Virus record (IMG/VR): IMGVR_UViG_3300025687_000106
Coordinates: 1 to 40,987 of that record
Origin: a virus
Length of the DNA: 40,987 nucleotides
Direction: 5' to 3' (one strand)
Shown here: positions 2,422 to 40,987 of the stretch, in pieces
How the letters are laid out: the number at the start of each line of letters is the position of its first letter
How positions within the stretch are numbered: the first letter of the stretch is position 1
The notes under the pieces: generated by a model
Seen by the model: only the letters and a program-made list of their open reading frames with translations
The model's database searches: none
Told to the model about the DNA's origin: nothing
Made by a program: the position numbers and the translations under genes

Positions 2422-3075
2422 ATGAATAAAAGAGAAAGTTTAATATTTTATAGAAGTTTCTATGAAGCTATAAAAGAATTAGATATAGAGAATCAATGAA
2501 AAATTTATAATGCAATATTTAAATATTGATTAGACTTTATTGAACCTAATTTAGAATGAATATCTAAAACTATATTCACTTTAATTAAACCTCAATTAGA
2601 TGCAAATATTAAGCGATTTAAAAATTGAAGTATAGAAAAAAAAAGCAAAACAGAAGCAAAACAGAAGCAAAAAATAAGCAAAGTACAAGCTAATAACAAT
2701 AACAATAACAATAACAATAACAATAACAATAACAATAACAATAACAATAACAATAACAATAACAAAGAAATAGAGATAGTCACAACTGAAGTTGCTCCCA
2801 AAAAATTAACATTAGAAGAATATATAAAAAAAGAATTTAGTTTAGATTTTATAAAAGAAGTATATGATAAATTTTGATTATCAAAAAAAGAATTTAAAGA
2901 AGAATGTAATGCTTTCGTTGAAAAATGGAAAGAAAAATCTCCAAATTGAAAAAAAGAAAGATGGGAGAAAGAAAAAACATTTGACCCAAAGTTGAGATTT
3001 AGAACATGGATGAGAAATAGTAAGAAATGGAATAAAGTATGAGATAAACAAAAAAATAAAACTATTATTATTTAA
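2422..3075 (+). CDS. DUF6291-like replication-module protein with a 24-Asn run
   Basis: The first ~70 residues (ESLIFYRSFYEAIKEL, then GKIYNAIFKYGL and IKPQLDANIKRFKNG) match the DUF6291 pattern seen in phage replisome-organiser-like proteins. A basic linker leads into exactly 24 consecutive Asn (residues 91-114), then a second helical, Trp- and Lys-rich domain. The Asn tract separates two folded regions, like a flexible linker. The gene is preceded by an attenuator leader. I infer a DNA replication role from the family; DNA binding is not shown. Confidence 0.75.
2692..2763 (+). repeat. (AATAAC)12 hexanucleotide tract encoding Asn24
   Basis: AAT and AAC alternate perfectly for 72 bp. Slippage by 6 bp would keep the frame and change linker length, so length polymorphism between close relatives is expected. 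Confidence 0.95.
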
Positions 3076-4018: not shown

Positions 4019-4039
4019 GATATAAATATAATGATAGAG

Positions 4040-4069
4040 CATGATTTAAACAATGAGAGAGACACTTTA
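4040..4069 (+). repeat. 30-bp exact repeat shared with 40005-40034
   Basis: Thirty identical bases recur 36 kb away inside the coiled-coil gene. Here they lie in a 14-codon open frame (4031-4075) that encodes the same HDLNNERDTL peptide. The copy carries the GAGACA promoter-like motif. It looks like a transplanted gene fragment or a mobile promoter piece. Confidence 0.85.
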
Positions 4070-4569: not shown

Positions 4570-4609
4570 TTAGTGAAATGTAATACTGTATTTAAAAAAT
4601 AAAAAAAAA

Positions 4610-7890: not shown

Positions 7891-8063
7891 TGAAACAACT
7901 CCTAACTAATAAACAATTCAATAATGCTATAAAACAATTAGAAGATGTTCTTAAAAAAAGATGATATGAACTACTTTTTAATAATACATGATTTAATATA
8001 ATAGAAAAACCTAAAATAGAATTTAAGTCTATGAAAAATCAGGAAACTAAAAATAAGACATAA
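7890..8063 (+). CDS. small basic protein (57 aa)
   Basis: Starts on the last base of the preceding stop codon. Mainly helical and Lys-rich. Its final codons lie inside the 55-bp conserved motif at 8051-8105. No family recognised. Confidence 0.5.
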
Positions 8064-8105
8064 AAACCGGATTAACTAAACTTAATTATATCTATTGTGG
8101 TAACT
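8051..8105 (+). other. conserved noncoding motif, copy 1
   Basis: Shares AAATAAGACATAAAAAC (17/17) and TATTGTGGTAACT (13/13) with 32702-32754, with 24-26 bp between the two blocks in both copies. The downstream part can fold: TGTG/CACA here, ATTGT/ACAAT in copy 2. Both copies lie upstream of a TTTACA promoter and beside one of the two leader-RNA modules. Function unknown. Confidence 0.75.
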
Positions 8106-8220: not shown

Positions 8221-8327
8221 TATCATTTAATGATACACAAAACATAAACCTCATAGTGTTTGAAGTCTATCCAACTTAGTACACTATGGATAGACGCTAA
8301 GTAATAGATTTTAAATATATAGAGGTT
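8221..8327 (+). ncRNA. pseudoknotted leader RNA, module 1
   Basis: Three interleaved helices: A 8252-8259 (CATAGTGT) with A' 8281-8288; B 8265-8272 (GTCTATCC) with B' 8288-8295; C 8274-8279 (ACTTAG) with C' 8297-8302. One base (8288) is shared by A' and B'. AACCTC 8247-8252 can pair with GAGGTT 8322-8327 as an outer helix. AACTTAGT 8273-8280 is also perfectly complementary to the terminator 5' arm ACTAAGTT 8333-8340, so C can choose between C' and the terminator. Module 2 on the minus strand at 32.5 kb has the same order with different sequences. Confidence 0.8.
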
Positions 8328-8368
8328 AAAAAACTAAGTTGGTATTAATTTATTAACTTAGTTTTTTT
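8328..8368 (+). terminator. leader terminator abutting the start codon
   Basis: A-run and ACTAAGTT pair with AACTTAGT and a T-run; the seven Ts end immediately before the ATG at 8369. There is no room for a Shine-Dalgarno sequence. The hairpin likely limits read-through into the gene. Confidence 0.8.
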
Positions 8369-8941
8369 ATGCAATTAGTTAAAGATATAAATACATTTTT
8401 TAGAAAAGATAAACAATATTGAATAAATGAATTATTTAAAGTAATGTATTCATTTTGTATTGAACAAAATAATTGTTTTATGTTAACGAGTACATATAAA
8501 ACTAAATGATTAAATAGAAATAATCATAGAAAAATAATGTGATTATTAAAAAAATATAAATTTGTAAAAAGTTGGAAAGTATATAATTCTAAATATAAAA
8601 AGAAATGTACTTACTATAGTTTATCCACAAAATTATATAATATATGTAGAAAAATATCAACAAAATTAGTTAATAAATATAATTTTATACAATTACATAA
8701 TGATATTAATATAAATGATGTAAAAATATTTATAAAAAATATATATAAAAAAACTGAATTTATTATTGATACTAATACTAAAATAACGAAACATATTTTT
8801 AGATTAAAATGAATAATCTATAAATTATTTAGAGATAATCAATGAATAAAAATATCACAAAATATATGATTTAATAAAATAAGAATATATAATTTTATTG
8901 AATTTAATAATTTAGTAATGAAATGATATGAAAAACAATAA
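8369..8941 (+). CDS. leader-controlled basic protein, module 1 (winged-helix-like)
   Basis: 190 aa, Lys-rich. The N-terminal ~85 residues (YGINELFKVMY, KTKGLNRNNHRKIMGLLKKY, then KSWKVYN and CTYYSLS) read like a winged helix: helices followed by a beta wing. A second basic alpha/beta part follows. It is clearly paralogous to the minus-strand gene at 31914-32462, with roughly half of the first 85 residues identical by eye, including DIN.FF, YGI.ELFK, KGLNRN and KSWK. Function unknown: autoregulatory DNA/RNA-binding protein or a toxin of a type III-like pair. Its end overlaps the next gene by 14 bp. Confidence 0.8.
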
Positions 8942-9296
8942 ATATGAAGAATATTTTTCTCAATGGATGTATGATAATTTACCTCCAAGTGATTTAGGTA
9001 TAATAATCCAAGATATTGATGCTATCATACAAAATTATAAAACTAAACGCTTTATGATTATTGAACTCAAAACAAGAGGAAATAATGTTACGAAATCACA
9101 AAGAGCTTTCTATTCAATGCTCAATGAAAGATTATATAAAACAAATAAAACAGATTGATGGGAATATGTATGAACAAATTTAATACGTTTTGAATGAACA
9201 AACTTCTATGACTGAAACGTTTTTCTTAATAATCAACTCACAGATGAATATAAACTTCAACAATTTATATTAAAAGAACTATGATATATTAACTAG
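8928..9296 (+). CDS. PD-(D/E)XK-like nuclease-fold protein
   Basis: 122 aa. IIIQDIDAIIQNYKTKRFMIIELKTRG gives an Asp pair, a beta hairpin and ELK, the D...E-x-K arrangement of restriction-type nucleases; TKSQRAFYSMLNERL continues as the usual helix with a Gln. Overlaps the preceding gene by 14 bp, so it is downstream of the same leader RNA. Substrate unknown; a role in processing DNA ends or in restriction of other DNA are both possible. Confidence 0.65.
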
Positions 9297-14759: not shown

Positions 14760-15098
14760 ATGTCAATAATATACTGAAACTGAAACTGATACTGATATTG
14801 AAACTGAAACTGAAACTGATACTGATACTGATACTGATACTGATACTGATACTGAGACTGAAACTGATACTGAGACTGAAACTGATACTGAGACTGAAAC
14901 TGATACTGAGACTGAAACTGAAACTGATACTGAAACTGATACTGAGACTGAAACTGATACTGAGACTGAAACTGATACTGAGACTGACACTGAAACTGAA
15001 ACTGATACTGATACTGAAACTGATACTGAGACTGAAACTGATACTGAGACTGAAACTGAGACTATAATAAAATAGTTAAAACTTTAATTACTAAATAA
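14760..15098 (+). CDS. Gly-X dipeptide-repeat protein, UGA at every second codon
   Basis: Read with UGA=Gly, ATG 14760 opens a 112-aa protein: five leader residues, then 48 Gly-X units with X = Asn, Tyr or Asp, then a short tail. A higher-order unit Gly-Asp-Gly-Asn-Gly-Tyr recurs. It has a family 1 variant cassette at its start, and the next gene begins 7 bp after its stop. The frames giving Thr-Asp/Glu and Leu-Lys/Ile are also open across the tract, but lack a start with this context. A disordered, sticky or silk-like protein is the natural reading. Alternatively the DNA repeat itself matters. Confidence 0.7.
14775..15062 (+). repeat. 288-bp hexanucleotide repeat ACTGAN
   Basis: Forty-eight uninterrupted 6-bp units TGANAC-type, with N mainly A, T or G and one C, and one TAT variant. 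Many units are grouped as 18-bp ACTGAG-ACTGAA-ACTGAT blocks. Size changes by unit slippage would keep frame. Confidence 0.95.
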
Positions 15099-26549: not shown

Positions 26550-29500
26550 ATGAATGAATTTAACAACAAAGATATAGTTAAATTTAAAAAGTTATTAAAT
26601 GAATGATTACCTGCTGAAGAAGCTAAAAGTATTATATTAAAAGATAAACAAAAACCTAAACAATATAATGCTACTGATTATTTATTTTGAACAACTGTTG
26701 AACCACAACAAGTACAACAAGAAAAAAAAGTAGAACCTATGTCATTAAAAGGTTTTTATGAATATGGTATAAAACCTTCTGCTAAACAATTAGTAAAACA
26801 ACCTAAAGAAATCGTAGAAAAAACATATGATATAGCAAAATGATGATTATGAAGAATTAAAGAAGCTTGAGAATGATTAGTTATACCAAGAGAAGATATA
26901 TGAAGAACATATACATTTCCTGAAGCAGCGACTAGATGAGCATGATGAGCATTACAAACAGTAGGTTCACCTTTTTTTGGTACATTTTTTCAATGAGCAC
27001 AAAATATATGATGAGTTGTAGAGCCTTTAGCTAAAGATATATATGAAACTACTTGAGAAGTTATACCTGATGTAGTAAAAGATATTATAGAAAATAAAAT
27101 TGTTGACCCTAGTATAGAATGAGTAAAGAATTGGTGGGATAAACAAACACCTGAACAAAAACAACAATTAAAAAATGTTTGAGTATGATTAGAAGTATTG
27201 AGTTATTATGCATGATTTTGATTATATAAAGCATTAAAAGGTAAAGCTCCTATAAGTCCTAAAGTTCCTACTACAAAACCTACAGTACCACCTAAAACTA
27301 CTTATCCATTAGATATACCTAAAGTTCAAAGGCCACTTAAACCAGTTTGAAAAACTTTAGAAGCATGATTGAAAGAAGTTCCTACTATGAAAGCTCCTTT
27401 TTCTATATCACAATCATTAAGAAATATACAAAGATGACCTAAAGAATTTAAATGAGTTGTATGAGAAACTCCTAAAATAACTCAAGTAAAACCTGATAAA
27501 ATAATAAAAGAATGAATTAATTTAACCAAATCTGATGATTTAATACAAAGATGATTAAGACCTACTATTAAAGGTAAAGATACTTGAGATAAGATGGATA
27601 TTTATAAAACTAAGATTAGAGAATGAGTTGAATCTACAACTAAAAGAAAATGAATACCAGATGATTGAATAGATGCATTAAATAAGGTATGAGAAAGTAA
27701 AAAAGATGTATGGAAACAAATAGAAAATAATCAATCTTATGTAAATAAAGTTACAAGAGAATGAGATATTGCTGATGATATTTATAAATTTTTAGATAAT
27801 GAAGAAAATTATGCTACATTAAAAGCATATCCTTGATTAGAAAAGAAACTTACTAAATATATAGAAAATTTTACTACAAATAAGAAATTAACACAACAAC
27901 AATTATTAGATTTAAAAACGAAACAAGCTGGTAAAATACCTTCAGATAAATGGGCTGAATTACTTACTACGGATAAAGAACAATTATTAGCTGATAGTAT
28001 AGTATCAAGAATTATTTGAAGAAGATTTGATGATGCTATAGAAGAAGTTCTATGAGTAGTTAATAAAAACTTAATGAGAGAATATTGAGCATTAAGAACT
28101 TTAGAAAAAGATTTAGCAAGAAGAATGTGAGTATTTACAAGAAATACGAAATGATGACTTACTTGATTAACTGATATATTTACTCTTCCTGATATTATAG
28201 TAGGTTGACTTACTTGAGATTTAAAACAATTATGAAAATGAGCTTTATGAAAAATAGCTTCATATACAATTAAAAGATGAGAAAATCCTAATGTTATTAT
28301 AAAAGAACTTTTTAAAATACATTCTCCTAAAAAACCTTGATTTATAGAAAAAGCTATATGAACTCAAGAATTTAAATGAGTACCAAAAAAAGGTATAATT
28401 TGACCTAAAAATATAACAAAAGAAACAAAATCAATCAAAAGTACATCAAATATAGCTAAAACAGGTAAAAATTCAATCTCTGAGGCATCGAAAACATCTT
28501 CTAATAAAAATATAAGTAAAACTAAAAAGAATGTCTCTAAGAGTGTAAAAAAACCAACAAAAGTAAGTAAAGCTGATGAAAGAGTAAGAAATGCTATAGA
28601 AAGTCATAAACAAAGACAAAAAAATGATTGATTTGAATTATTAGATAGATTAAAAGAACGTTCTGTTCAATTAACTAATAAATTAAAAGATGATGCTTTA
28701 AAATGATTAAGAGAAGAATATAGAATAACTAATAAAAATATTTCAAAGTATAAAGATATATTTTGAAATAAAAAACCTACAGATACTATTACTGTTTATA
28801 GATGAGCTAAAAATAATATAAATATATGAGACCAAGTAACTATAGATAAATTAAATGCTCAAAAATATATATGATTAAGAGAATGAGCTCAACTTCAAGA
28901 AATGAAAGTTAAAGTATGAGATTTAATAAGAAATGAATGATTAAGAACAGAATTTATATATGTACCTAAAAAATCTATTAAAAAACCATTAATTAATAAA
29001 TGAGGTTATATAAATCCTACTGAAATTAAAAACTCATTAAAAATACTTAATACTAAAAATATAACAACAACTGCTTGAAAAATAGCTAAACAATTATGAA
29101 TAGAAGTTTGAAAAGTAAAAGAATTATTAAAATGATATGTACAAAAATACTGAACAAAGCTAAAGGATAAGATATGAGAAATCTTTGATGATTTGGCAGA
29201 TAAGTTGTGAGTAAGAAGTAAACTACTTGCTTGAGAGAAAGCACAATTTGCTCCTTTATGAATGAAAAAAAAAGCTATAGATTTAACGAAAGCATGAAAA
29301 AAGCCTAATGAAGTATGGAAAAAGACTTGATGGGAAAAATGAAAAGATGGGAAGTGGAGATTTGAGATAGATGATACGAAAGCTAAAGTAAAATCATATA
29401 TGCAAATAGAATGATGAGAGGGAACAAAGCTAACAAATATACTCAAACATGATGATTTATATAAGCAATATCCTAAATTAAAAGATACAAAAGTTATATT

Positions 29501-30291: not shown

Positions 30292-31917
30292 ATGAATAAA
30301 GAGAAAGAAATAGTTTCATTGGAACAATTACATTTACAAAAAATACAAAAAATTATTAAAGAAAAATGTAAAATTTTAAATGAAGCAGCAAAATCTGATG
30401 AAACTAAACAAGTACTTATAGAAATATGTAAAAAAGACCCTATCTACTTTTTTACTTATTTTTTAGTTACAGACCGTAATCCTGGTTTAATTCCTGAACA
30501 ATATTGAAATGAAATACCTTTTATACTATTTGAATTTCAAGAAGAATTTATTAAAGATGCTTGGGATTGTATATTAATGTGAAGATTACCTCCTGAAGAA
30601 AGAACTGAACCAACTGATATGTTTAGTGAAAAATCTCGTCAAATGTGATTCTCATGGTTATTTGCTTGATTACAACTTTATGCTTATATATTTCATGATA
30701 TGAAATCTTTATATATATCAATGAAAGCAGATGAGGTAGATAGAGCATGAGATATTAAATCACATTTTGAAAAGATTCGTTTTATGATACGTAATCTACC
30801 TCAATGGATATTACCAAAATGATTAAATAAAGAATCAGGTACAGAACATAATAAATCTATGGTTATTTCTCGTTGAGATTGAACTTGAGTTATTAAATGA
30901 GAATCTGCTAATCCTAATGCTTGAAGATGAGGTACTACAGCTTTTACAATCTTTGATGAAATGGCTTTTATGCAATATGCTCAAGCTATTAATATGGCAA
31001 TAGCTTCTTCTACTCCTTGTCGTTTCTTTAATAGTACACCAAACTGAGAATGAAATGAGTATTATAGAATGAGAAAATTAGCAGTTGATTGAAAAATAAG
31101 ATATCATTCTTGCATGCGGTACGAAAATCCTTTTTATACTAAAGAATGGTATAAATGGAGAACTGAGTCTATGACTAAAACCCAAATTGCTCAAGAAATT
31201 TTAATAGACTATAATACTGCATTAGTTTGACGTGTATATCCAGAATATAAACATTGAACAGAATTAATTGAATATGATGATAGTTTACCGTTGTATATAG
31301 GGATTGATAATTCACATGGTGGTCAAGATAACAATGCTCTCGTTGTATTACAAAAAGATTGACATTATTTTAATATTATTGATAGTTGTGAATTCAATTG
31401 TAGTCCTAGACAAATGGCAGAAATAATGGCTAAACAACCTACTATACAAATGAGTAAAAAACAATTGGATTTTTATAATAAATATAGAGAAATGAAATTA
31501 CCTATATTTGTAAGTGATTGTTATGATACACATACTTCAGTTTGAGATAATACAATATTTTGATATTATCAAGATGTATGAATATTTTTAAATATACCAT
31601 CTACTAGAAAAAAACAAGAACAAATACAAATAGTAAGTTCTAATTTACATAGAGTAAGAGTAAGTGAAACTTGTGCAGATTTTAGTTCATGTATACAAAA
31701 TTCTATTTATCCTGAAATTAAAGAAAATAGTATGAGAACTACTCCAGCTACTTTACCAGTTCATTCTTGGGCGAGTCATATAAGGACAAGTTTTGAATAT
31801 TTAATTGTATGGTTAATAGAACAAGAAAAATATACTAATGTAAAACCTAAGAGAATAGCAACAGAAGAAAGAAATCCAATAACTTGAGAAGTAGAAACTA
31901 AATATGTCTATATTTAA
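30292..31917 (+). CDS. terL: terminase large subunit
   Basis: Packaging ATPase/nuclease, 541 aa. Walker-A-like SRQMGFS at residues 115-121 (Gly from UGA), a coupling region with SMKADEVDRAGDIKSHFEKIRF, Walker B TIFDEMAF with D222-E223, then STPNGEGNEYY. The nuclease part begins at YIGIDNSHGGQDNNALVVL (D339) and includes FVSDCYDTH with a later acidic residue, as in RNase H-like terminases. The length is normal. It is unusual that the minus-strand gene is inserted between it and the portal; their stop codons overlap. Confidence 0.93.
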
Positions 31918-32462
31918 GTTTTTTTCATAATTAAATGATTAAATTCAAATATTGTATATATTGTTTTTCTTAAATTATTTCTTTCTGTTATTAACCATAG
32001 TCATTTACTTTTAAATAAACAATATAAAACTCATCGTAACCTAAATAATCTTTTTCACTCAAATATAATAAATTCAGTTTTAGGATACATTTTTTTTATA
32101 AATTGTTGTATCTTTTCGATTCTCATTCATTCTTTTAATTCAATATATGTAGATTTTTTACTTAATTTAACTATAATATCTCTACAAATCATATATAAAT
32201 CATTACTTATACTTCTATAAGTACATACTTTTCAATATGTTTTATTATATTTTTTCCAACTCTTTATTTTTCAAGCTTTTTCTAATAAATCTAATATTTT
32301 TCTTAAACTATTTCTATTTAATCATTTAACTTGATATGTAGTAGTTAATAAAAAACTATTATTATTTTCTATACTCTTAGTATAAAAAGTCTTAAATAAT
32401 TCAGTTATTCAATAATCTTTATTTTTTTTAAAAAATCAATTTATATCTTGTATTATTCTCAT
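31914..32462 (-). CDS. leader-controlled basic protein, module 2 (winged-helix-like)
   Basis: 182 aa, the only clear minus-strand gene. Paralogue of the 8369 protein: DINGFFKKNKDYGITELFKTFY, QVKGLNRNSLRKILDLLEKAGKIKSWKKYN, CTYRSISNDLYMICRDI, then FIKKMYPKTEFII and IFEFNHLIMK at matching positions. A helix-helix-wing layout is likely in the first 85 residues. It has its own promoter, structured leader and terminator. Its stop overlaps the terL stop. The position between terL and portal is that of a moron. Confidence 0.82.
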
Positions 32463-32465
32463 AAT

Positions 32466-32492
32466 AAAAAAAACTAGTAATTAATACTAGCT
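32466..32492 (-). terminator. leader terminator abutting the module 2 start
   Basis: On the minus strand CTAGTATTAATTACTAG is followed by eight Ts and then ATTATG. AGCTAGT at its 5' side is complementary to ACTAGCT inside the upstream RNA (32578-32572). No Shine-Dalgarno sequence fits. Confidence 0.8.
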
Positions 32493-32612
32493 CTTTTTAT
32501 CTTTTACTAAAATCTTAACATAATAAATCTTTTTTTTCTTCTTAGTGTCTTGACCAAAAGCATAACTAAGAAGCTAGTCAAGACTTACTATGCTAAGGTT
32601 TTTAATTTTAGT
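32493..32612 (-). ncRNA. pseudoknotted leader RNA, module 2
   Basis: On the minus strand, three interleaved helices in the order A-B-C-A'-B'-C': A AGCATA (32594-32589) with A' TATGCT (32564-32559); B GTCTTGAC (32584-32577) with B' GTCAAGAC (32554-32547); C CTTCTTAGT (32573-32565) with C' ACTAAGAAG (32546-32538). B pairs 8/8 and C pairs 9/9. The segment ACTAGCT (32578-32572) can instead pair with the terminator 5' arm. Same topology as module 1 with different sequences, so pairing is conserved by covariation. Confidence 0.8.
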
Positions 32613-32618
32613 AATTAC

Positions 32619-32646
32619 TTTATATATATTTTTTTTAGTTTGTAAA
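32619..32646 (-). promoter_or_regulatory. minus-strand promoter TTTACA-N16-TATAAA
   Basis: TTTACA on 32646-32641, spacer 32640-32625 (16), TATAAA on 32624-32619. It fires toward the leader RNA and gene of module 2. Confidence 0.75.
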
Positions 32647-32701
32647 ATCTTTTTTATATAATAATAATAAATTATATAATTTAAGTATGTTGTATGAACT
32701 A

Positions 32702-32754
32702 AAATAAGACATAAAAACTTCATTATCTAAACAATATATATTATTGTGGTAACT
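32702..32754 (+). other. conserved noncoding motif, copy 2
   Basis: AAATAAGACATAAAAAC at 32702-32718 and TATTGTGGTAACT at 32742-32754 match copy 1 at 8051-8105. Inverted ATTGT/ACAAT can form a small hairpin. It lies between the divergent promoters at 32646 (-) and 32785 (+). Confidence 0.75.
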
Positions 32755-32784
32755 GAAACAATTGTAAAACTTTTTTTTAAAATA

Positions 32785-32812
32785 TTTACAAAATAATACA
32801 AAAATATAAAAT
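32785..32812 (+). promoter_or_regulatory. promoter TTTACA-N16-TAAAAT for the head genes
   Basis: TTTACA 32785-32790, TAAAAT 32807-32812. TAACAT at 32821-32826 pairs with ATGTTA at 32840-32845, which contains the portal start codon, so the AUG may be partly occluded. Confidence 0.78.
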
Positions 32813-32839: not shown

Positions 32840-34792
32840 ATGTTAGTTTGAAATGAATCTAAAAATACAGAGAAAGAATTAGAAACAATAAAACAAATAA
32901 CTGAACCAGAAGTAAAACCATATATTTCAAGTAAAGAAGATGAAGAGATTATTTGATTTATTACTACAAGAAAAAGACTTATGGCTGCTAAAAGAAGTCA
33001 AATGGATAAATCTTGGAAACAATATCAAAAACAATATGAAGCATTATTTGTACCTTATAGTGATTGAAGAAGTTCTAGTAATGTACCTTTAGAAAGAGCT
33101 ATAGTTGAATTATTTGTTGCAGAAGCTATTAAAAGACCTACTACATATAATTTTAATGCATGAATTGAATATGATTTTCAATCTCAAGTATTAGAAAGAG
33201 TATGGGAAGATGATTGGTCTATAAATAATAGAGATAATGAAATATTAGATAATGAGTATTTAACTGCTATATATGGTACATCTATTATATATAATGGTTA
33301 TAAAAGAAGTTATAGAGTTATAGAAGATTTTGATTGATATAATGAGGAAACTGGTAAAATAGATTATGAAAGAAAAATGCAAACAAAATCTGATATATTA
33401 TTAGAAAATATAGATATTAGATATTTTTGGATAGATGAAAGAGCAAATTCTATAGAAAAAGCTATTGATTGTATATATGAAAGTTATATTACATATGAAG
33501 AATTTAGAGAATTTTATTTAGATAATGAATATGATGATGAGAAATTAAATGCTATTGTTCCTACTTATCAAAAACAAGATGAACATAGACCTTATGTTAT
33601 TAATGAAGAAAGATGAGATTGAGAAGCTAAATTTGTTAAAATAACACAATATTGGAATACAAAATTAGATAGACATTATACTATAGCTAATGAAAATGTA
33701 TTAATTAAAAAACATCCTATATTGAATGCTACTCATTGTATACCTTTTACACCAAGACAATATGGTAAAAATTTATTTAGTATTTATTGATATGGTTTAT
33801 GTGAAGCTTTAGTTACATTCAAATCAGATATTAATAATTTAAGAGAAATGTTGATGGAAGCTATTAAAAAATCTAATCAAGATGTAATAGCTTTATGAAA
33901 TTGATTAGAATTTGATGGTAATAAATTCGCATATAATAATCAATTTATAACATTTAAAGGTAATTTACAATGAAATTTTCATCAATTATCTTGAACTCCA
34001 CCAAATCAATCTATATTTACATATTTACAAGAATTATTTAAACAAATAGCTATATTTACAGGTATAGATATAATGAATATATTATGAGAACCACAACAAA
34101 CAGCATATCAAACAGCTGTACAAAAAGAAAGTTCTTTACAAAGAGTAAATGTAGTACTTAAAAATAGAGATGCAGCATTTGAAAGAATAGCAAATCAACA
34201 TAAAGATAATTTACAAATGTTTTATCCATTAAAACTTGTGAGAGAATTGGTAAAAGTTGATAAAGAAAATAATCCTATGGAAGAATGAGAAGCTAAATAT
34301 CCTACTATAGAAACAACAAAAGTTAAAGGTAAAAGATTTGCAAAAGATTGAATAAAAGAAGTATTTGAAGTTACTCCTGAAAAAATAAGATGAAAAATTA
34401 AAATAGATGTAAGTACTGATTTAAATACTCCAACTATTAATGAAGTAGAAAAAGCACAAAAATCTGAATTTTTTATTAAATTAGCAGAAATAACAAATGC
34501 TTATAATGCAGATAAAGATTTAGAAAGTATTATACCTAAAAAGAAAGCTATTATGGACCTTGCTGAACTTAATAATATAGATATTATGAGAAGTGATAAT
34601 AATGAAGTTGCAGAAGAAAAACAAAAACTTTATGAAGAACTTCAAAGTATGATGAAAGGCACAAGAACACCACAACAAAGACCAAATTTTGAATGAATTA
34701 AAAAAGAAGCTGAACTACAAAATATGGCACAAGTTGCTCCAGAAGCAGCAGTTCAATGAGAATTACCTACTACACCTAATATAGCAAGATAA
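32840..34792 (+). CDS. portal protein
   Basis: 650 aa. Helical core regions including TTRKRLMAAKRSQMDKSWKQYQKQYE, then a beta-rich clip/stem portion, and IAIFTGIDIMNILGEPQQTAYQTAVQKESSLQRVNVVLKNRDAAFERIANQH, which is characteristic of portal stems in short-tailed phages. The size is in the range of P22-like portals. Its DNA-exit ring would be bound by terL. C-terminal third is coiled-coil and Gln-rich. Confidence 0.82.
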
Positions 34793-35202: not shown

Positions 35203-35227
35203 ATAAAAAAGTTCTTTAACATAAATA

Positions 35228-35308
35228 CTAATTAATTGCTAGTGATTATAAAGAAATTTATAGTTACTATGTAGCGAATTAGCTACACATTTATTCGTTA
35301 ATAATTAG
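35228..35308 (+). promoter_or_regulatory. three-way-junction leader of the scaffold/capsid operon
   Basis: Outer helix CTAATTA 35228-35234 with TAATTAG 35302-35308. Inside: a 13-bp hairpin (35240-35269) with a GAAA tetraloop, all pairs Watson-Crick or G-U, and TGTAGC/GCTACA (35270-35287) with loop GAATTA. The scaffold gene begins 5 bp after the outer helix. It may stabilise or regulate the mRNA for the most abundant virion proteins. Confidence 0.72.
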
Positions 35309-35313
35309 ACTCT

Positions 35314-36072
35314 ATGTCAAAAGACCAAGAAAATCAAGAAGAAATTCTTGATAGTCAAGAAGAGGAACAAAATAGTAACTCTAATGACAACGAAGAAGAT
35401 GAGACTGCTGATGCAAACTCTCAAAAATGAAGCGATGACAATATTGACTATAAGAAACGTTATAGCGATAGTTCTCGTGAAAACTCAAATATTCGTAATA
35501 CATTTACTGCTTATCGTGATGTATTAAAAGATAATTCTAAGTTATTGGATTTAAATAAAGATATTTGAAAAAAAATTGTTGAACAATTATATGAGGATTG
35601 ATATACAGAAACTGATGATTATGATGAGTTAATTTCTATTATTAAATGAGAAGAAAAACCTCAAAATAAAGAAATTGATGAAGAAAAATTAACAAAACGT
35701 ATTCGTCAACAAATAATTGATGAACAAAACGAAGAAGCTGCTAATAAAGTATTAGATAAAGCTCTTAAAAAGTATGATTCTGATGTTAAAGATAAATACC
35801 TAAATGAGTTTAAAGAAACTGTAGGTAAAAGAAAATTAACACCTGAACTTGCTGAAAAAGAAATAAATAAAATAATACTTTATTATAATAAAAAAAGCAC
35901 ATCTAAAAGTAATAAAAATGATGATGTTTTAAGTAAATTGGCTTCTAATAATCTTTGAGGTAGTAATACAAAAAGTGCTACTACTATGACAATAGCTAAA
36001 TTGGATGCAGCGTGAGTTCCTAAAGATAGACAAAAAACGTTATATCCTGAATTATTTTCTAAAAAATCATAA
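35314..36072 (+). CDS. scaffold-like protein (252 aa)
   Basis: Very acidic, Ser/Asn/Glu-rich N-terminus, long helical and Lys/Glu-rich centre, and a short conserved-looking end (MTIAKLDAAGVPKDRQKTLYPELF). This composition and its place before the decoration and capsid genes fit a scaffolding protein. Few UGA codons relative to other genes. Confidence 0.62.
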
Positions 36073-37516: not shown

Positions 37517-38533
37517 ATGGCTGTTTTAACTACATTTAGTTACGAAGATTCAGTTGATTTGATTAATAGAGAGTTTGATGCTGGTAAGCTTAATCCTCTT
37601 GATAATTCAATGAAAGAATCAGGAATCGTAAAAACAAACACTGTTCCTGCGAATAGTGGAGGTACTAGAAGACATAAAGAAGTACCTGTAGGAGAACTTT
37701 ATGCTAATGATAAAGCTGAAGGTGGTCTCACTACAAAAACTAGAGTTCAACAAGGATATTATAAGGATACTACTGCTAGAAGTTTTTCTAAAAGTATTGA
37801 TATTACTTATGAAATGAGAACTCTTAATAAAGTAAATGAAATTTACAATGCTGCTAATTTTATTGGTGGTGTAATTACTAGAAGGGAAGATTTGAACTTA
37901 AGTTTATTCTTATCTTTTGGTACTGCTACTTCATATACTAATATGGATGGTAGAAGTGTAGATATTTCAACTGGTGATGGTTTATCACTTTGGAATACTT
38001 CACATACATTAACAGGTTCAAGTACTACTTATAGAAATAGACTTGCTAATAATCCAGCATTCTCTGAAGGTGCACTTGAATTAATGGAAGATTTATTCGT
38101 TACTAATATTTATACTAATCTTGGTGAACAAGTTGGTTGTACTCCAGATACTATCTTTTCAACTGATTATCCAACATTAGTAAATACTATAAGAAGGAAT
38201 TTACAATCTACTGCACAAATTTCAGCTCCAAATGAAGGTGTTGTTAATGTATATAAAGGTAAATATAAACATGTAATTCTTAATAAATTTGATATGAATG
38301 CAAATGGTGTTAAGGATGCTACAAAGAAAAATTATTGGGGAATGGCTGATTCTAAAATCTCTTCATTCTTCCATGATGTATATTCTTCTCCTGAAATGAA
38401 ATATCCAACTAACGGAAACAATGGTGAAGATATTGAAACCCTCGATTGGACTTTTACATCAATTGGGATAAATGACTCTTGTGTTGTTGCTGGTAGAGGT
38501 TTAATGTTCTCATCAGGTGATGGAACTGCATAG
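37517..38533 (+). CDS. major capsid protein (HK97-type fold likely)
   Basis: 338 aa. RHKEVPVGELYANDKAEG, RREDLNLSLFLSFGTA, SLWNTSHTLTGSSTTYRNRLANNPAFSEGALE, and a C-terminal domain with HVILNKFDMNANGVKD and a final beta strand are typical of phage major capsid proteins of the Mu gpT-like/HK97-type kind. All 29 glycines are GGN; none is UGA, in contrast to almost every other gene here. Followed by a G-rich hairpin. Confidence 0.85.
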   Translation: MAVLTTFSYEDSVDLINREFDAGKLNPLDNSMKESGIVKTNTVPANSGGTRRHKEVPVGELYANDKAEGGLTTKTRVQQGYYKDTTARSFSKSIDITYEMRTLNKVNEIYNAANFIGGVITRREDLNLSLFLSFGTATSYTNMDGRSVDISTGDGLSLWNTSHTLTGSSTTYRNRLANNPAFSEGALELMEDLFVTNIYTNLGEQVGCTPDTIFSTDYPTLVNTIRRNLQSTAQISAPNEGVVNVYKGKYKHVILNKFDMNANGVKDATKKNYWGMADSKISSFFHDVYSSPEMKYPTNGNNGEDIETLDWTFTSIGINDSCVVAGRGLMFSSGDGTA

Positions 38534-39794: not shown

Positions 39795-40406
39795 ATGAAA
39801 GTTATTAAATGACTTGAATTACAAAAACATTATCTTAAAGAAGCTGAAAAAGCTAGATTAGAAATGATTGAAGCTATTCAAGATAGAGATAAAGTGTTTT
39901 CTGAAATAAAAGAACAAAGAAATTGATTAAATATAATAAAAAAAGAAATAAATGAATTAGAAAATATATATAATCAAAAAAATATTGATTATAAGTGATT
40001 AGAACATGATTTAAACAATGAGAGAGACACTTTAGAGAAAAATATATATAAACATATAGAAACATCTAAACAAGTGTCTCTATCTTTACATAAATGAGAA
40101 GAAGAATTAGAAAAAATAAAAAAAGAGATAGAAAAATATAAAATTGATTTAAAAAGATTAAAAGAATTAAAAAAACAAGAAAAATATTTACAAAATGAAA
40201 TTCAAAAATTAAAACATCATAAATCTTTATATGAATTAGAATTAGATGAAAGAGAGAAATGAATGGATATGGAGAGAAAAATACTCGACGATTCTAAAAA
40301 AGAATTTAGTAAACAAGTAAATGAATTACAGAAAAAAGAAAAGAAATTAAATCTTAAAGAAAAGAGATTAAATGAATTAGAACAAAGTTTATTTTCTAAA
40401 AAATAA
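39795..40406 (+). CDS. coiled-coil protein (203 aa)
   Basis: Nearly all heptad-like Lys/Glu/Leu/Ile, with a long continuous coiled coil of about 180 residues. It carries the 30-bp repeat shared with 4040-4069 (peptide HDLNNERDTL). Likely a rod-like structural or assembly protein. No enzyme motif is visible. Confidence 0.6.
40005..40051 (+). repeat. 30-bp repeat with intragenic GAGACA motif
   Basis: 40005-40034 is identical to 4040-4069. GAGACACTTTA continues to TATATATAA (40043-40051), matching the terL promoter-like motif spacing. GAGACACTT and AAGTGTCTC (40068-40081 region) form an inverted repeat around it. Within a coding gene, so a promoter role would be internal. Confidence 0.6.
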
Positions 40407-40409
40407 AAT

Positions 40410-40987
40410 ATGTGAAGAAGTGCAGGTTCAAATATAACGATACCAACTTGAATATCATATGCTGATAATGCTACAACAGATGCATTTTGAAGACTAAGAA
40501 CTTCAGAGCCAGTTACATTATTTGATAGTAAGCAAATATTTGATAATTTACCATTACTTTATGATGACCAAGAAGTAAGTGGAAGTGGTACAACAAGTAC
40601 ATGGTCGCAAGATACAGCTTCTAGTGTAATGTGAGTAGCTGAAACAACTGCTTGAAAAAGAGTAAGACAATCTTTCATGTGGTTTAATTACCAGCCATGA
40701 AAATCTCATCAGATTATCACAACATGAGTATTAAGAAAATCAGGTGGTGGAACTTGAATAAAGTCAGCTATGTGATATTTTAATGATGAAAATTGAGTTT
40801 TTGTTTTAGATAATGAATGAACACCAACAATGGTACTAAGAAGTTATGTAACATGAAGTGCTGTTGATACAGAAGTAGCTCAATCTAGTTGGAATATAGA
40901 TACTATGGATTGAACATGAGATAGTGGAATAACAATAGATTTTACAAAATCACAGATATTTTTTACAGATTTAGAATGGTTATGAGT
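40410..40987 (+). CDS. tail/fibre-region structural protein, partial at right edge
   Basis: At least 192 residues, open to the end of the window. RLRTSEPVTLFDSKQIFDNLPLLYDDQEVSGSGTTSTWSQDTASSVMGVAETTAGKRVRQSFMWFNYQPGKS and GTGIKSAMGYFNDENGVFVLDNEG, IDTMDGTGDSGITIDFTKSQIFFTDLEWLG match a recurrent phage structural protein found with fibres and head fibres. Many conserved glycines are UGA. The C-terminus lies outside. Confidence 0.8.

What the first reader, a model, noticed from the sequence alone, without database searches (positions are those of the whole stretch)
31914..32646. A lone antisense gene cassette inserted between terminase and portal
The terL-portal pair is normally adjacent. Here a complete minus-strand unit (promoter 32646-32619, leader, terminator, gene) sits between them, and its stop codon overlaps that of terL. 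It is the only clear minus-strand gene in 41 kb. This is moron-like: a self-contained unit that may be expressed when the late genes are silent, for example to affect the host or superinfecting phages.
Basis: partly seen in the sequence, partly recalled or inferred. Interest (0 to 1): 0.75.

Follow-up and report, generated by a model that had tools for sequence, protein, structure and literature searches.

The report
Attenuator-controlled optional DNA-binding gene cassette
A phage that reads TGA as glycine carries, back to front between two essential virion genes, an extra gene for a probable DNA-binding protein behind an RNA leader that looks built to keep it switched off; a distant second copy sits elsewhere in the genome, and known relatives lack the insert at this junction.

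Summary
With TGA read as Gly (code 25) a 182-aa minus-strand ORF (31914-32462) lies between terL and the portal gene, its stop overlapping terL's. In all seven relatives that span the junction (at least six different phages) terL and portal are separated by only about 50-80 bp, so the insert is optional. It is not lone: a 49%-identical paralogue (8369-8941, plus strand, E 8e-55) sits in the early region with the same layout.

Both copies have a leader with interleaved complementary strands A-B-C-A'-B'-C', an A/T-rich terminator-like hairpin ending at the ATG, and a strand complementary to that hairpin's own arm. The two leaders are the two most structured 120-nt stretches of the genome. This fits transcription attenuation: normally a ~150-nt RNA, with the protein made only on read-through. 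The protein has a predicted N-terminal winged helix and matches no known family.

Best reading: an optional, probably mobile, attenuator-controlled winged-helix gene cassette. Its layout resembles free-standing homing genes (T4 segD lies antisense between capsid genes) and type III toxin-antitoxin loci, but it failed the tested sequence criteria for both. 'Moron' fits the position; an effect on the host or superinfecting phages is unsupported.

The parts
31914..32462 (-). cassette gene, 182 aa (code 25), predicted N-terminal winged-helix domain (residues ~1-105), C-terminal domain unresolved
32463..32610 (-). structured leader RNA (about 148 nt; start inferred from the promoter-like site)
   Evidence: fold -53.9 kcal/mol, z -8.9 for 32463-32620; second most structured 120-nt stretch of the genome
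32589..32594 (-). strand A (AGCATA); partner A' at 32559-32564
   Evidence: first hairpin in the folding path
32577..32584 (-). strand B (GTCTTGAC); partner B' at 32547-32554
32565..32573 (-). strand C (CTTCTTAGT); partner C' at 32538-32546
32580..32597 (-). 5' side of the 18-bp long arm that takes over A and B; partner at 32514-32531
32555..32579 (-). candidate antiterminator strand, complementary to the 5' arm of the terminator hairpin
   Evidence: duplex -14.5 kcal/mol, shuffle p 0.017
32463..32502 (-). terminator-like hairpin with U8, ending 3 nt before the ATG
   Evidence: below the scanner's G+C threshold
32617..32646 (-). promoter-like site (TTTACA, 18 nt, TAAAGT)
   Evidence: count at chance level; the 8 kb copy has a comparable TTTTACA...TATATAA upstream, part of a repeat family seen at 4587, 8154, 9362 and 16841
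32701..32754 (+). flanking element M, shared with 8050-8105 (also + strand)
   Evidence: exact 18-mer plus exact 13-mer at similar spacing; not found in relatives with up to 1 mismatch
8369..8941 (+). paralogous gene, 190 aa
8226..8368 (+). paralogue's leader with the same A-B-C-A'-B'-C' order (A 8252-8259, B 8265-8273, C 8274-8279), candidate antiterminator 8270-8281, terminator-like hairpin about 8328-8367
   Evidence: fold z -7.9; rank 1
30292..31917 (+). terL, left neighbour
32840..34792 (+). portal gene, right neighbour

Best explanation
The cassette is an optional, probably mobile, self-contained expression unit. SHOWN from sequence: a gene with a divergent second copy; the insert absent at the junction in all relatives seen; the same leader architecture in both copies. 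INFERRED: transcription starts on the minus strand about 150 nt upstream. The nascent RNA first folds hairpin A:A', then B:B', which leaves strand C free. If that state persists, strand C pairs with the arm of the terminator hairpin and RNA polymerase reads through into the gene. If not, a long arm sequesters A and B, C:C' closes, the terminator forms just before the start codon, and only a short RNA is made. The product is a small winged-helix DNA-binding protein. Its likely role is regulation or maintenance of the cassette itself (self-control or homing-like spread) rather than making the virion. The signal that sets the switch is unknown.
For: Paralogy 49%, E 8e-55. Junction empty in seven relatives. 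The two leaders are ranks 1 and 2 in fold stability over both strands, each on its gene's coding strand, z -8.9 and -7.9. They also tie for the best A-B-C-A'-B'-C' pattern in the window (score 32; best of 12 shuffles of the + strand 30). Both follow the same minimum-energy path with length: A:A', B:B', long arm with C:C', terminator, although helix sequences differ between copies. In both, the strand after B is complementary to that copy's own terminator arm (p 0.017 and 0.006). Winged helix: VIA-align Z 8.8, rmsd 2.2 over 79 residues, against wHTH protein AF1382, with many MarR, PadR and HxlR regulators close behind. Relatives carry HNH homing-type genes inserted between capsid-region genes.
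Against: Only two leader sequences exist, so covariation support is thin. Promoter matches are at chance level. The protein model is weak (mean pLDDT 58; 48 for the paralogue) and Z near 8 can reflect a common arrangement. No nuclease or recombinase motif was found, so mobility rests on presence/absence and the second copy. No transcript data. Copies are too diverged to show recent movement. Element M has opposite orientations relative to the two genes, which a simple moved unit does not predict.
Confidence: 0.55

Rival explanations
1. Free-standing homing-type mobile gene: the protein, or a partner, promotes copying of the cassette into empty terL-portal junctions, with the RNA structure limiting its expression.
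For: T4 free-standing endonuclease genes sit between conserved genes; segD lies antisense between capsid genes 23 and 24; several such genes are restrained by RNA hairpins and I-TevI binds an operator near its promoter (PMC2988022). Relatives of this phage carry NUMOD/HNH genes between capsid-region genes, and in relative G003 the best interleaved-strand leader (40247-40340) directly precedes an ORF that I read as HNH-like by eye. Element M lies upstream of both copies. The right flank resembles the terL 3' end of L002 (suggestive only).
Against: No HNH, GIY-YIG or other nuclease match in Pfam, PHROGs or NCBIfam; the C-terminal domain is unresolved; no cut site known.
Confidence: 0.3
2. Type III-like toxin-antitoxin or abortive module: structured RNA, terminator, then toxin gene.
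For: Gene order (single promoter, structured RNA, Rho-independent terminator, protein of about 180 aa) matches the type III layout (PMC5086642).
Against: The RNA has no tandem repeats, the criterion in PMC5086642; no ToxN Pfam match; the predicted fold is a winged helix; PADLOC matches are marginal (0.0016 and 0.0057, one copy only).
Confidence: 0.1
3. Moron: an accessory gene expressed when late genes are silent, acting on the host or on superinfecting phages.
For: Optional, antisense, own leader and terminator-like element, between late genes.
Against: No host-directed or exclusion family match; no integrase or repressor was identified, so lysogeny is not shown; the paralogue lies in the early region.
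Confidence: 0.25
4. Replication or copy-number module: a winged-helix initiator controlled by a leader attenuator, as in plasmids with attenuated rep genes.
For: Weak Foldseek matches to phage replisome organizers and initiators; this phage and two relatives put pseudoknotted terminator leaders before replication-region genes.
Against: Matches are not significant (best E above 0.002) and winged helices are generic; no antisense RNA identified; two copies in one genome would be redundant; an insert between terL and portal is an odd place for an initiator.
Confidence: 0.12

Closest known systems
T4 segD and other free-standing homing endonuclease genes (PMC2988022)
   Same: Optional gene inserted between conserved virion genes; segD is antisense to its neighbours; several members are restrained by RNA hairpins upstream of the start codon
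   Different: No nuclease motif found; leader looks like a transcription attenuator rather than a hairpin hiding a ribosome-binding site; segD has no identified promoter of its own
Type III toxin-antitoxin systems (ToxIN, CptIN, TenpIN; PMC5086642)
   Same: Structured RNA, intrinsic terminator, then a protein gene of similar size
   Different: No tandem RNA repeats, no ToxN-family match, winged-helix fold predicted
Leader attenuators of the terminator/antiterminator kind (T-box, antisense-controlled plasmid rep genes; PMC7430163 and general knowledge)
   Same: Mutually exclusive antiterminator and terminator pairings just upstream of the gene
   Different: Not matched by any Rfam family at gathering score; signal unknown; three interleaved strand pairs used in sequence
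Phage morons (general knowledge)
   Same: Extra gene with its own control signals between late genes, absent from relatives
   Different: Terminator precedes rather than follows the gene; a diverged second copy exists in the same genome

Membership tests
Free-standing homing endonuclease gene | Recognisable nuclease domain (GIY-YIG, HNH, LAGLIDADG, PD-(D/E)XK) | tested here: not met
   No match in Pfam, PHROGs, NCBIfam; an unrecognised domain in the C-terminal half is not excluded
Free-standing homing endonuclease gene | Optional insertion between conserved genes, empty site in relatives | tested here: met
   Seven empty junctions
Free-standing homing endonuclease gene | Cuts the empty site and is copied into it | not testable with these tools
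   Needs biochemistry and phage crosses
Type III toxin-antitoxin | Toxin homologous to ToxN/CptN/TenpN | tested here: not met
   No ToxN hit in Pfam scan or six-frame search (whose controls did not ring either); CptN and TenpN covered only by the general Pfam, NCBIfam and PADLOC scans
Type III toxin-antitoxin | Antitoxin RNA made of tandem repeats | tested here: not met
   No tandem repeat in either leader (sequence read directly; none in repeat search)
Type III toxin-antitoxin | Rho-independent terminator between RNA and protein gene | tested here: inconclusive
   Strong A/T-rich hairpin with U-run in both copies, but below the scanner's G+C criterion
Transcription attenuator leader | Mutually exclusive terminator and antiterminator pairings | tested here: met
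   Both copies; p 0.017 and 0.006; in silico only
Transcription attenuator leader | Termination and read-through switched by a signal | not testable with these tools
   Needs in vitro transcription or RNA-seq
Phage moron | Extra gene between conserved genes, absent from relatives | tested here: met
Phage moron | Own promoter and a terminator after the gene | tested here: not met
   Promoter at chance level; the terminator-like hairpin precedes the gene, and downstream the gene runs into terL
Winged-helix DNA-binding protein | Winged-helix fold | tested here: inconclusive
   Predicted in both paralogues; best Z 8.8, rmsd 2.2 over 79 residues, on models of low confidence

The most novel reading that the evidence does not exclude
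A new kind of mobile phage module: an RNA that folds through three successive strand exchanges as it is transcribed (a kinetic timer) gates a DNA-binding protein of an undescribed family, and the unit spreads by inserting between virion genes of phages of TGA-recoding bacteria.
Probability: 0.2. Interest if true: 0.75.

Novelty: new variant of a known kind. Interest (0 to 1): 0.5.

Why it matters
If right, phages of the uncultured, TGA-recoding Absconditabacteria/Gracilibacteria carry optional genes controlled by elaborate attenuator RNAs, a control logic seldom described for phage accessory genes. The leader gives a compact, sequence-divergent pair with which a step-by-step RNA folding switch could be tested in vitro, and the protein is a family without relatives in the searched collections.

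Tried and rejected
(1) Close relatives of either protein: none in viral contigs by single protein, by alignment, by a degenerate DNA pattern (one hit, unrelated), in genome contigs, or in phage and plasmid records. These searches reach near relatives only, and the phage and plasmid ones may break at TGA, so absence is not shown. (2) A scan for host genomes by a TGA-rich EF-Tu motif found nothing, probably because my pattern was too strict. (3) Rfam: no match above gathering other than two tRNAs; low matches (mycoplasma frameshift element, PreQ1) are far below cut-off. (4) A simultaneous three-helix knot: rejected by reasoning, since in the 8 kb copy strands A' and B' have no linker between them, so the pairings are better read as alternatives. 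(5) Element M as an antisense partner of the leaders: no specific complementarity stood out. M elsewhere: none by exact pattern. (6) Missing Shine-Dalgarno as a special feature: rejected, most genes here lack one (13 of 64 have one). (7) Structural membership of any one wHTH family: many families tie, none singled out. (8) TGA=Trp: rejected, since Gly restores glycine motifs (versus 9, 24). (9) Covariance model of the leader: not built, as two sequences are too few.

Full report
WHAT IS THERE. The window is a phage genome in which TGA is a glycine codon: open frames appear only with TGA as sense, and reading it as Gly restores motifs such as NTGTGFTGVTGIEFAH. Code 25 is that of Absconditabacteria and Gracilibacteria and of many of their phages (PMC10746230); the host itself was not identified here. 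Under code 25 a 182-aa ORF runs on the minus strand from 32462 to 31914, its stop overlapping that of terL. TerL is confirmed; the portal assignment rests on synteny and a match of two relatives to the SU10 portal family.

IT IS A GENE AND IT IS NOT ALONE. The protein aligns over its whole length with the product of 8369-8941 (plus strand) at 49% identity, E 8e-55. All 9 and all 7 glycines of the two are TGA. The copies are old, so this is not a fresh duplication.

IT IS OPTIONAL AT THIS PLACE. Seven relatives spanning the terL-portal junction (L002-L007 and L010; L005 and L006 appear to be the same phage; TerL 52-69% identical) have gaps of roughly 50-80 bp there and nothing between. In the window the gap is 922 bp. 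A profile of the two proteins finds no homologue in those records; most are fragments. The extra DNA spans about 31918-32785; the last ~55 bp before the portal gene resemble the relatives' junction. The right flank also resembles the terL 3' end of L002, which might be a remnant of insertion, but in such A/T-rich DNA this is only suggestive.

THE LEADER. Both genes are preceded by a leader of about 145-150 nt. Over the whole genome and both strands, the two leaders are the two most structured 120-nt stretches for their composition, each on its gene's coding strand; fold z-scores are -8.9 and -7.9. In both, complementary strands occur in the order A, B, C, A', B', C'; a scan for this pattern puts the two leaders joint first in the window at score 32, while the best of 12 shuffles of the + strand reached 30. 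The helix sequences differ between copies but the arrangement is kept. Minimum-energy folds of growing transcripts give the same order of events in both: hairpin A:A', then B:B', then a long arm that takes up the A and B strands while C:C' closes, and finally a terminator-like hairpin whose U-run abuts the ATG. The strand after B is complementary to the 5' arm of that copy's own terminator (p 0.017 and 0.006 against shuffled leaders). In the 8 kb copy A' and B' have no linker between them, so I read the pairings as successive alternatives and not as one knot. Caveats: the terminator hairpins are A/T-rich; copy 1's is not called by the consensus scanner, and promoter matches are at chance level. 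Missing Shine-Dalgarno motifs are normal in this genome.

THE PROTEIN. No Pfam, PHROGs or NCBIfam family matches; PADLOC gives two marginal matches to one copy only. AlphaFold models from two sequences are weak (mean pLDDT 58 and 48), but both give the same N-terminal helix-helix-helix-strand-strand-helix order of a winged helix. Structure comparison returns mostly winged-helix proteins: best Z 8.8, rmsd 2.2 over 79 residues, with MarR, PadR and HxlR regulators close behind. The C-terminal half is unresolved.

MECHANISM. The best-supported account is transcription attenuation: by default RNA polymerase stops just before the gene and releases a ~150-nt RNA; if the B:B' state is held, strand C pairs with the terminator arm and the gene is read. 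Shown: the gene, its paralogue, the empty junctions, the shared leader architecture. Inferred: transcription, termination, the switch, DNA binding, mobility. The signal is unknown.

WHAT IT RESEMBLES. T4 segD is a free-standing endonuclease gene lying antisense between capsid genes 23 and 24, and several T4-type homing genes are restrained by RNA hairpins (PMC2988022). One relative carries two HNH genes between capsid-region genes (L006 9348-9887 and 10403-10933), so such inserts do occur in the group. But no nuclease motif was found here, so membership is not claimed. Type III toxin-antitoxin loci share the order RNA, terminator, protein gene (PMC5086642), but the tandem RNA repeats and the ToxN match are missing. 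The position fits a moron; a host-directed effect has no evidence.

ELEMENT M. A ~55-bp element (18 exact bases, then 13 exact bases about 40 bp from its start) lies upstream of both genes, on the plus strand in each, so in opposite orientation relative to the gene. It might be an operator or target site; it is unexplained.

VERDICT. The interpretation needs amending: a two-copy, attenuator-controlled winged-helix cassette, a new variant of known kinds of optional phage genes.

Noticed in passing
2334-2412, upstream of DUF6291 gene 2422-3075: GGTGTGA is complementary to the loop (TCACACC) of a terminator-like hairpin just before the gene. Relatives have the same design with different sequences before replication-region genes: G004 about 32840-32920 and G003 about 26880-26970. 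Looks like a covarying pseudoknot attenuator.
   Followed up: partly
32701-32754 and 8050-8105: Element M, about 55 bp, shared upstream of both cassette genes, always on the plus strand; partly overlaps the end of a small ORF at the 8 kb site.
   Followed up: partly
37517-38533: Probable major capsid gene (assigned by position and conservation only) has no TGA and 29 GGN glycine codons, whereas most genes here use mainly TGA for glycine.
   Followed up: no
1-681: tRNA-Ala followed by an ORF with 13 GGN and no TGA glycines and higher G+C than most of the window; might be foreign or a contig-end artefact.
   Followed up: no
14760-15098: Tandem array of 12- and 18-bp steps encoding a low-complexity ORF of 112 codons, 48 of them TGA.
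   Followed up: no
4035-4069 and 40000-40034: 35-bp direct repeat, 97% identical (30 bp exact); the second copy lies inside gene 39795-40406.
   Followed up: no
record G003 (holds L004), 40247-40340 in record coordinates; L012/L013 cover it: Strongest interleaved-strand leader among the relatives (score 34) directly before ORF 40359-40922, HNH-like by eye.
   Followed up: partly
8928-9296: Gene overlapping the end of the 8 kb paralogue has a sub-threshold VRR_NUC nuclease match (E 0.0005).
   Followed up: no
35208-35360: Structured intergenic stretch on both strands; relatives have strong hairpins at the same place (G003 12211, G004 18001, L010 9241).
   Followed up: no
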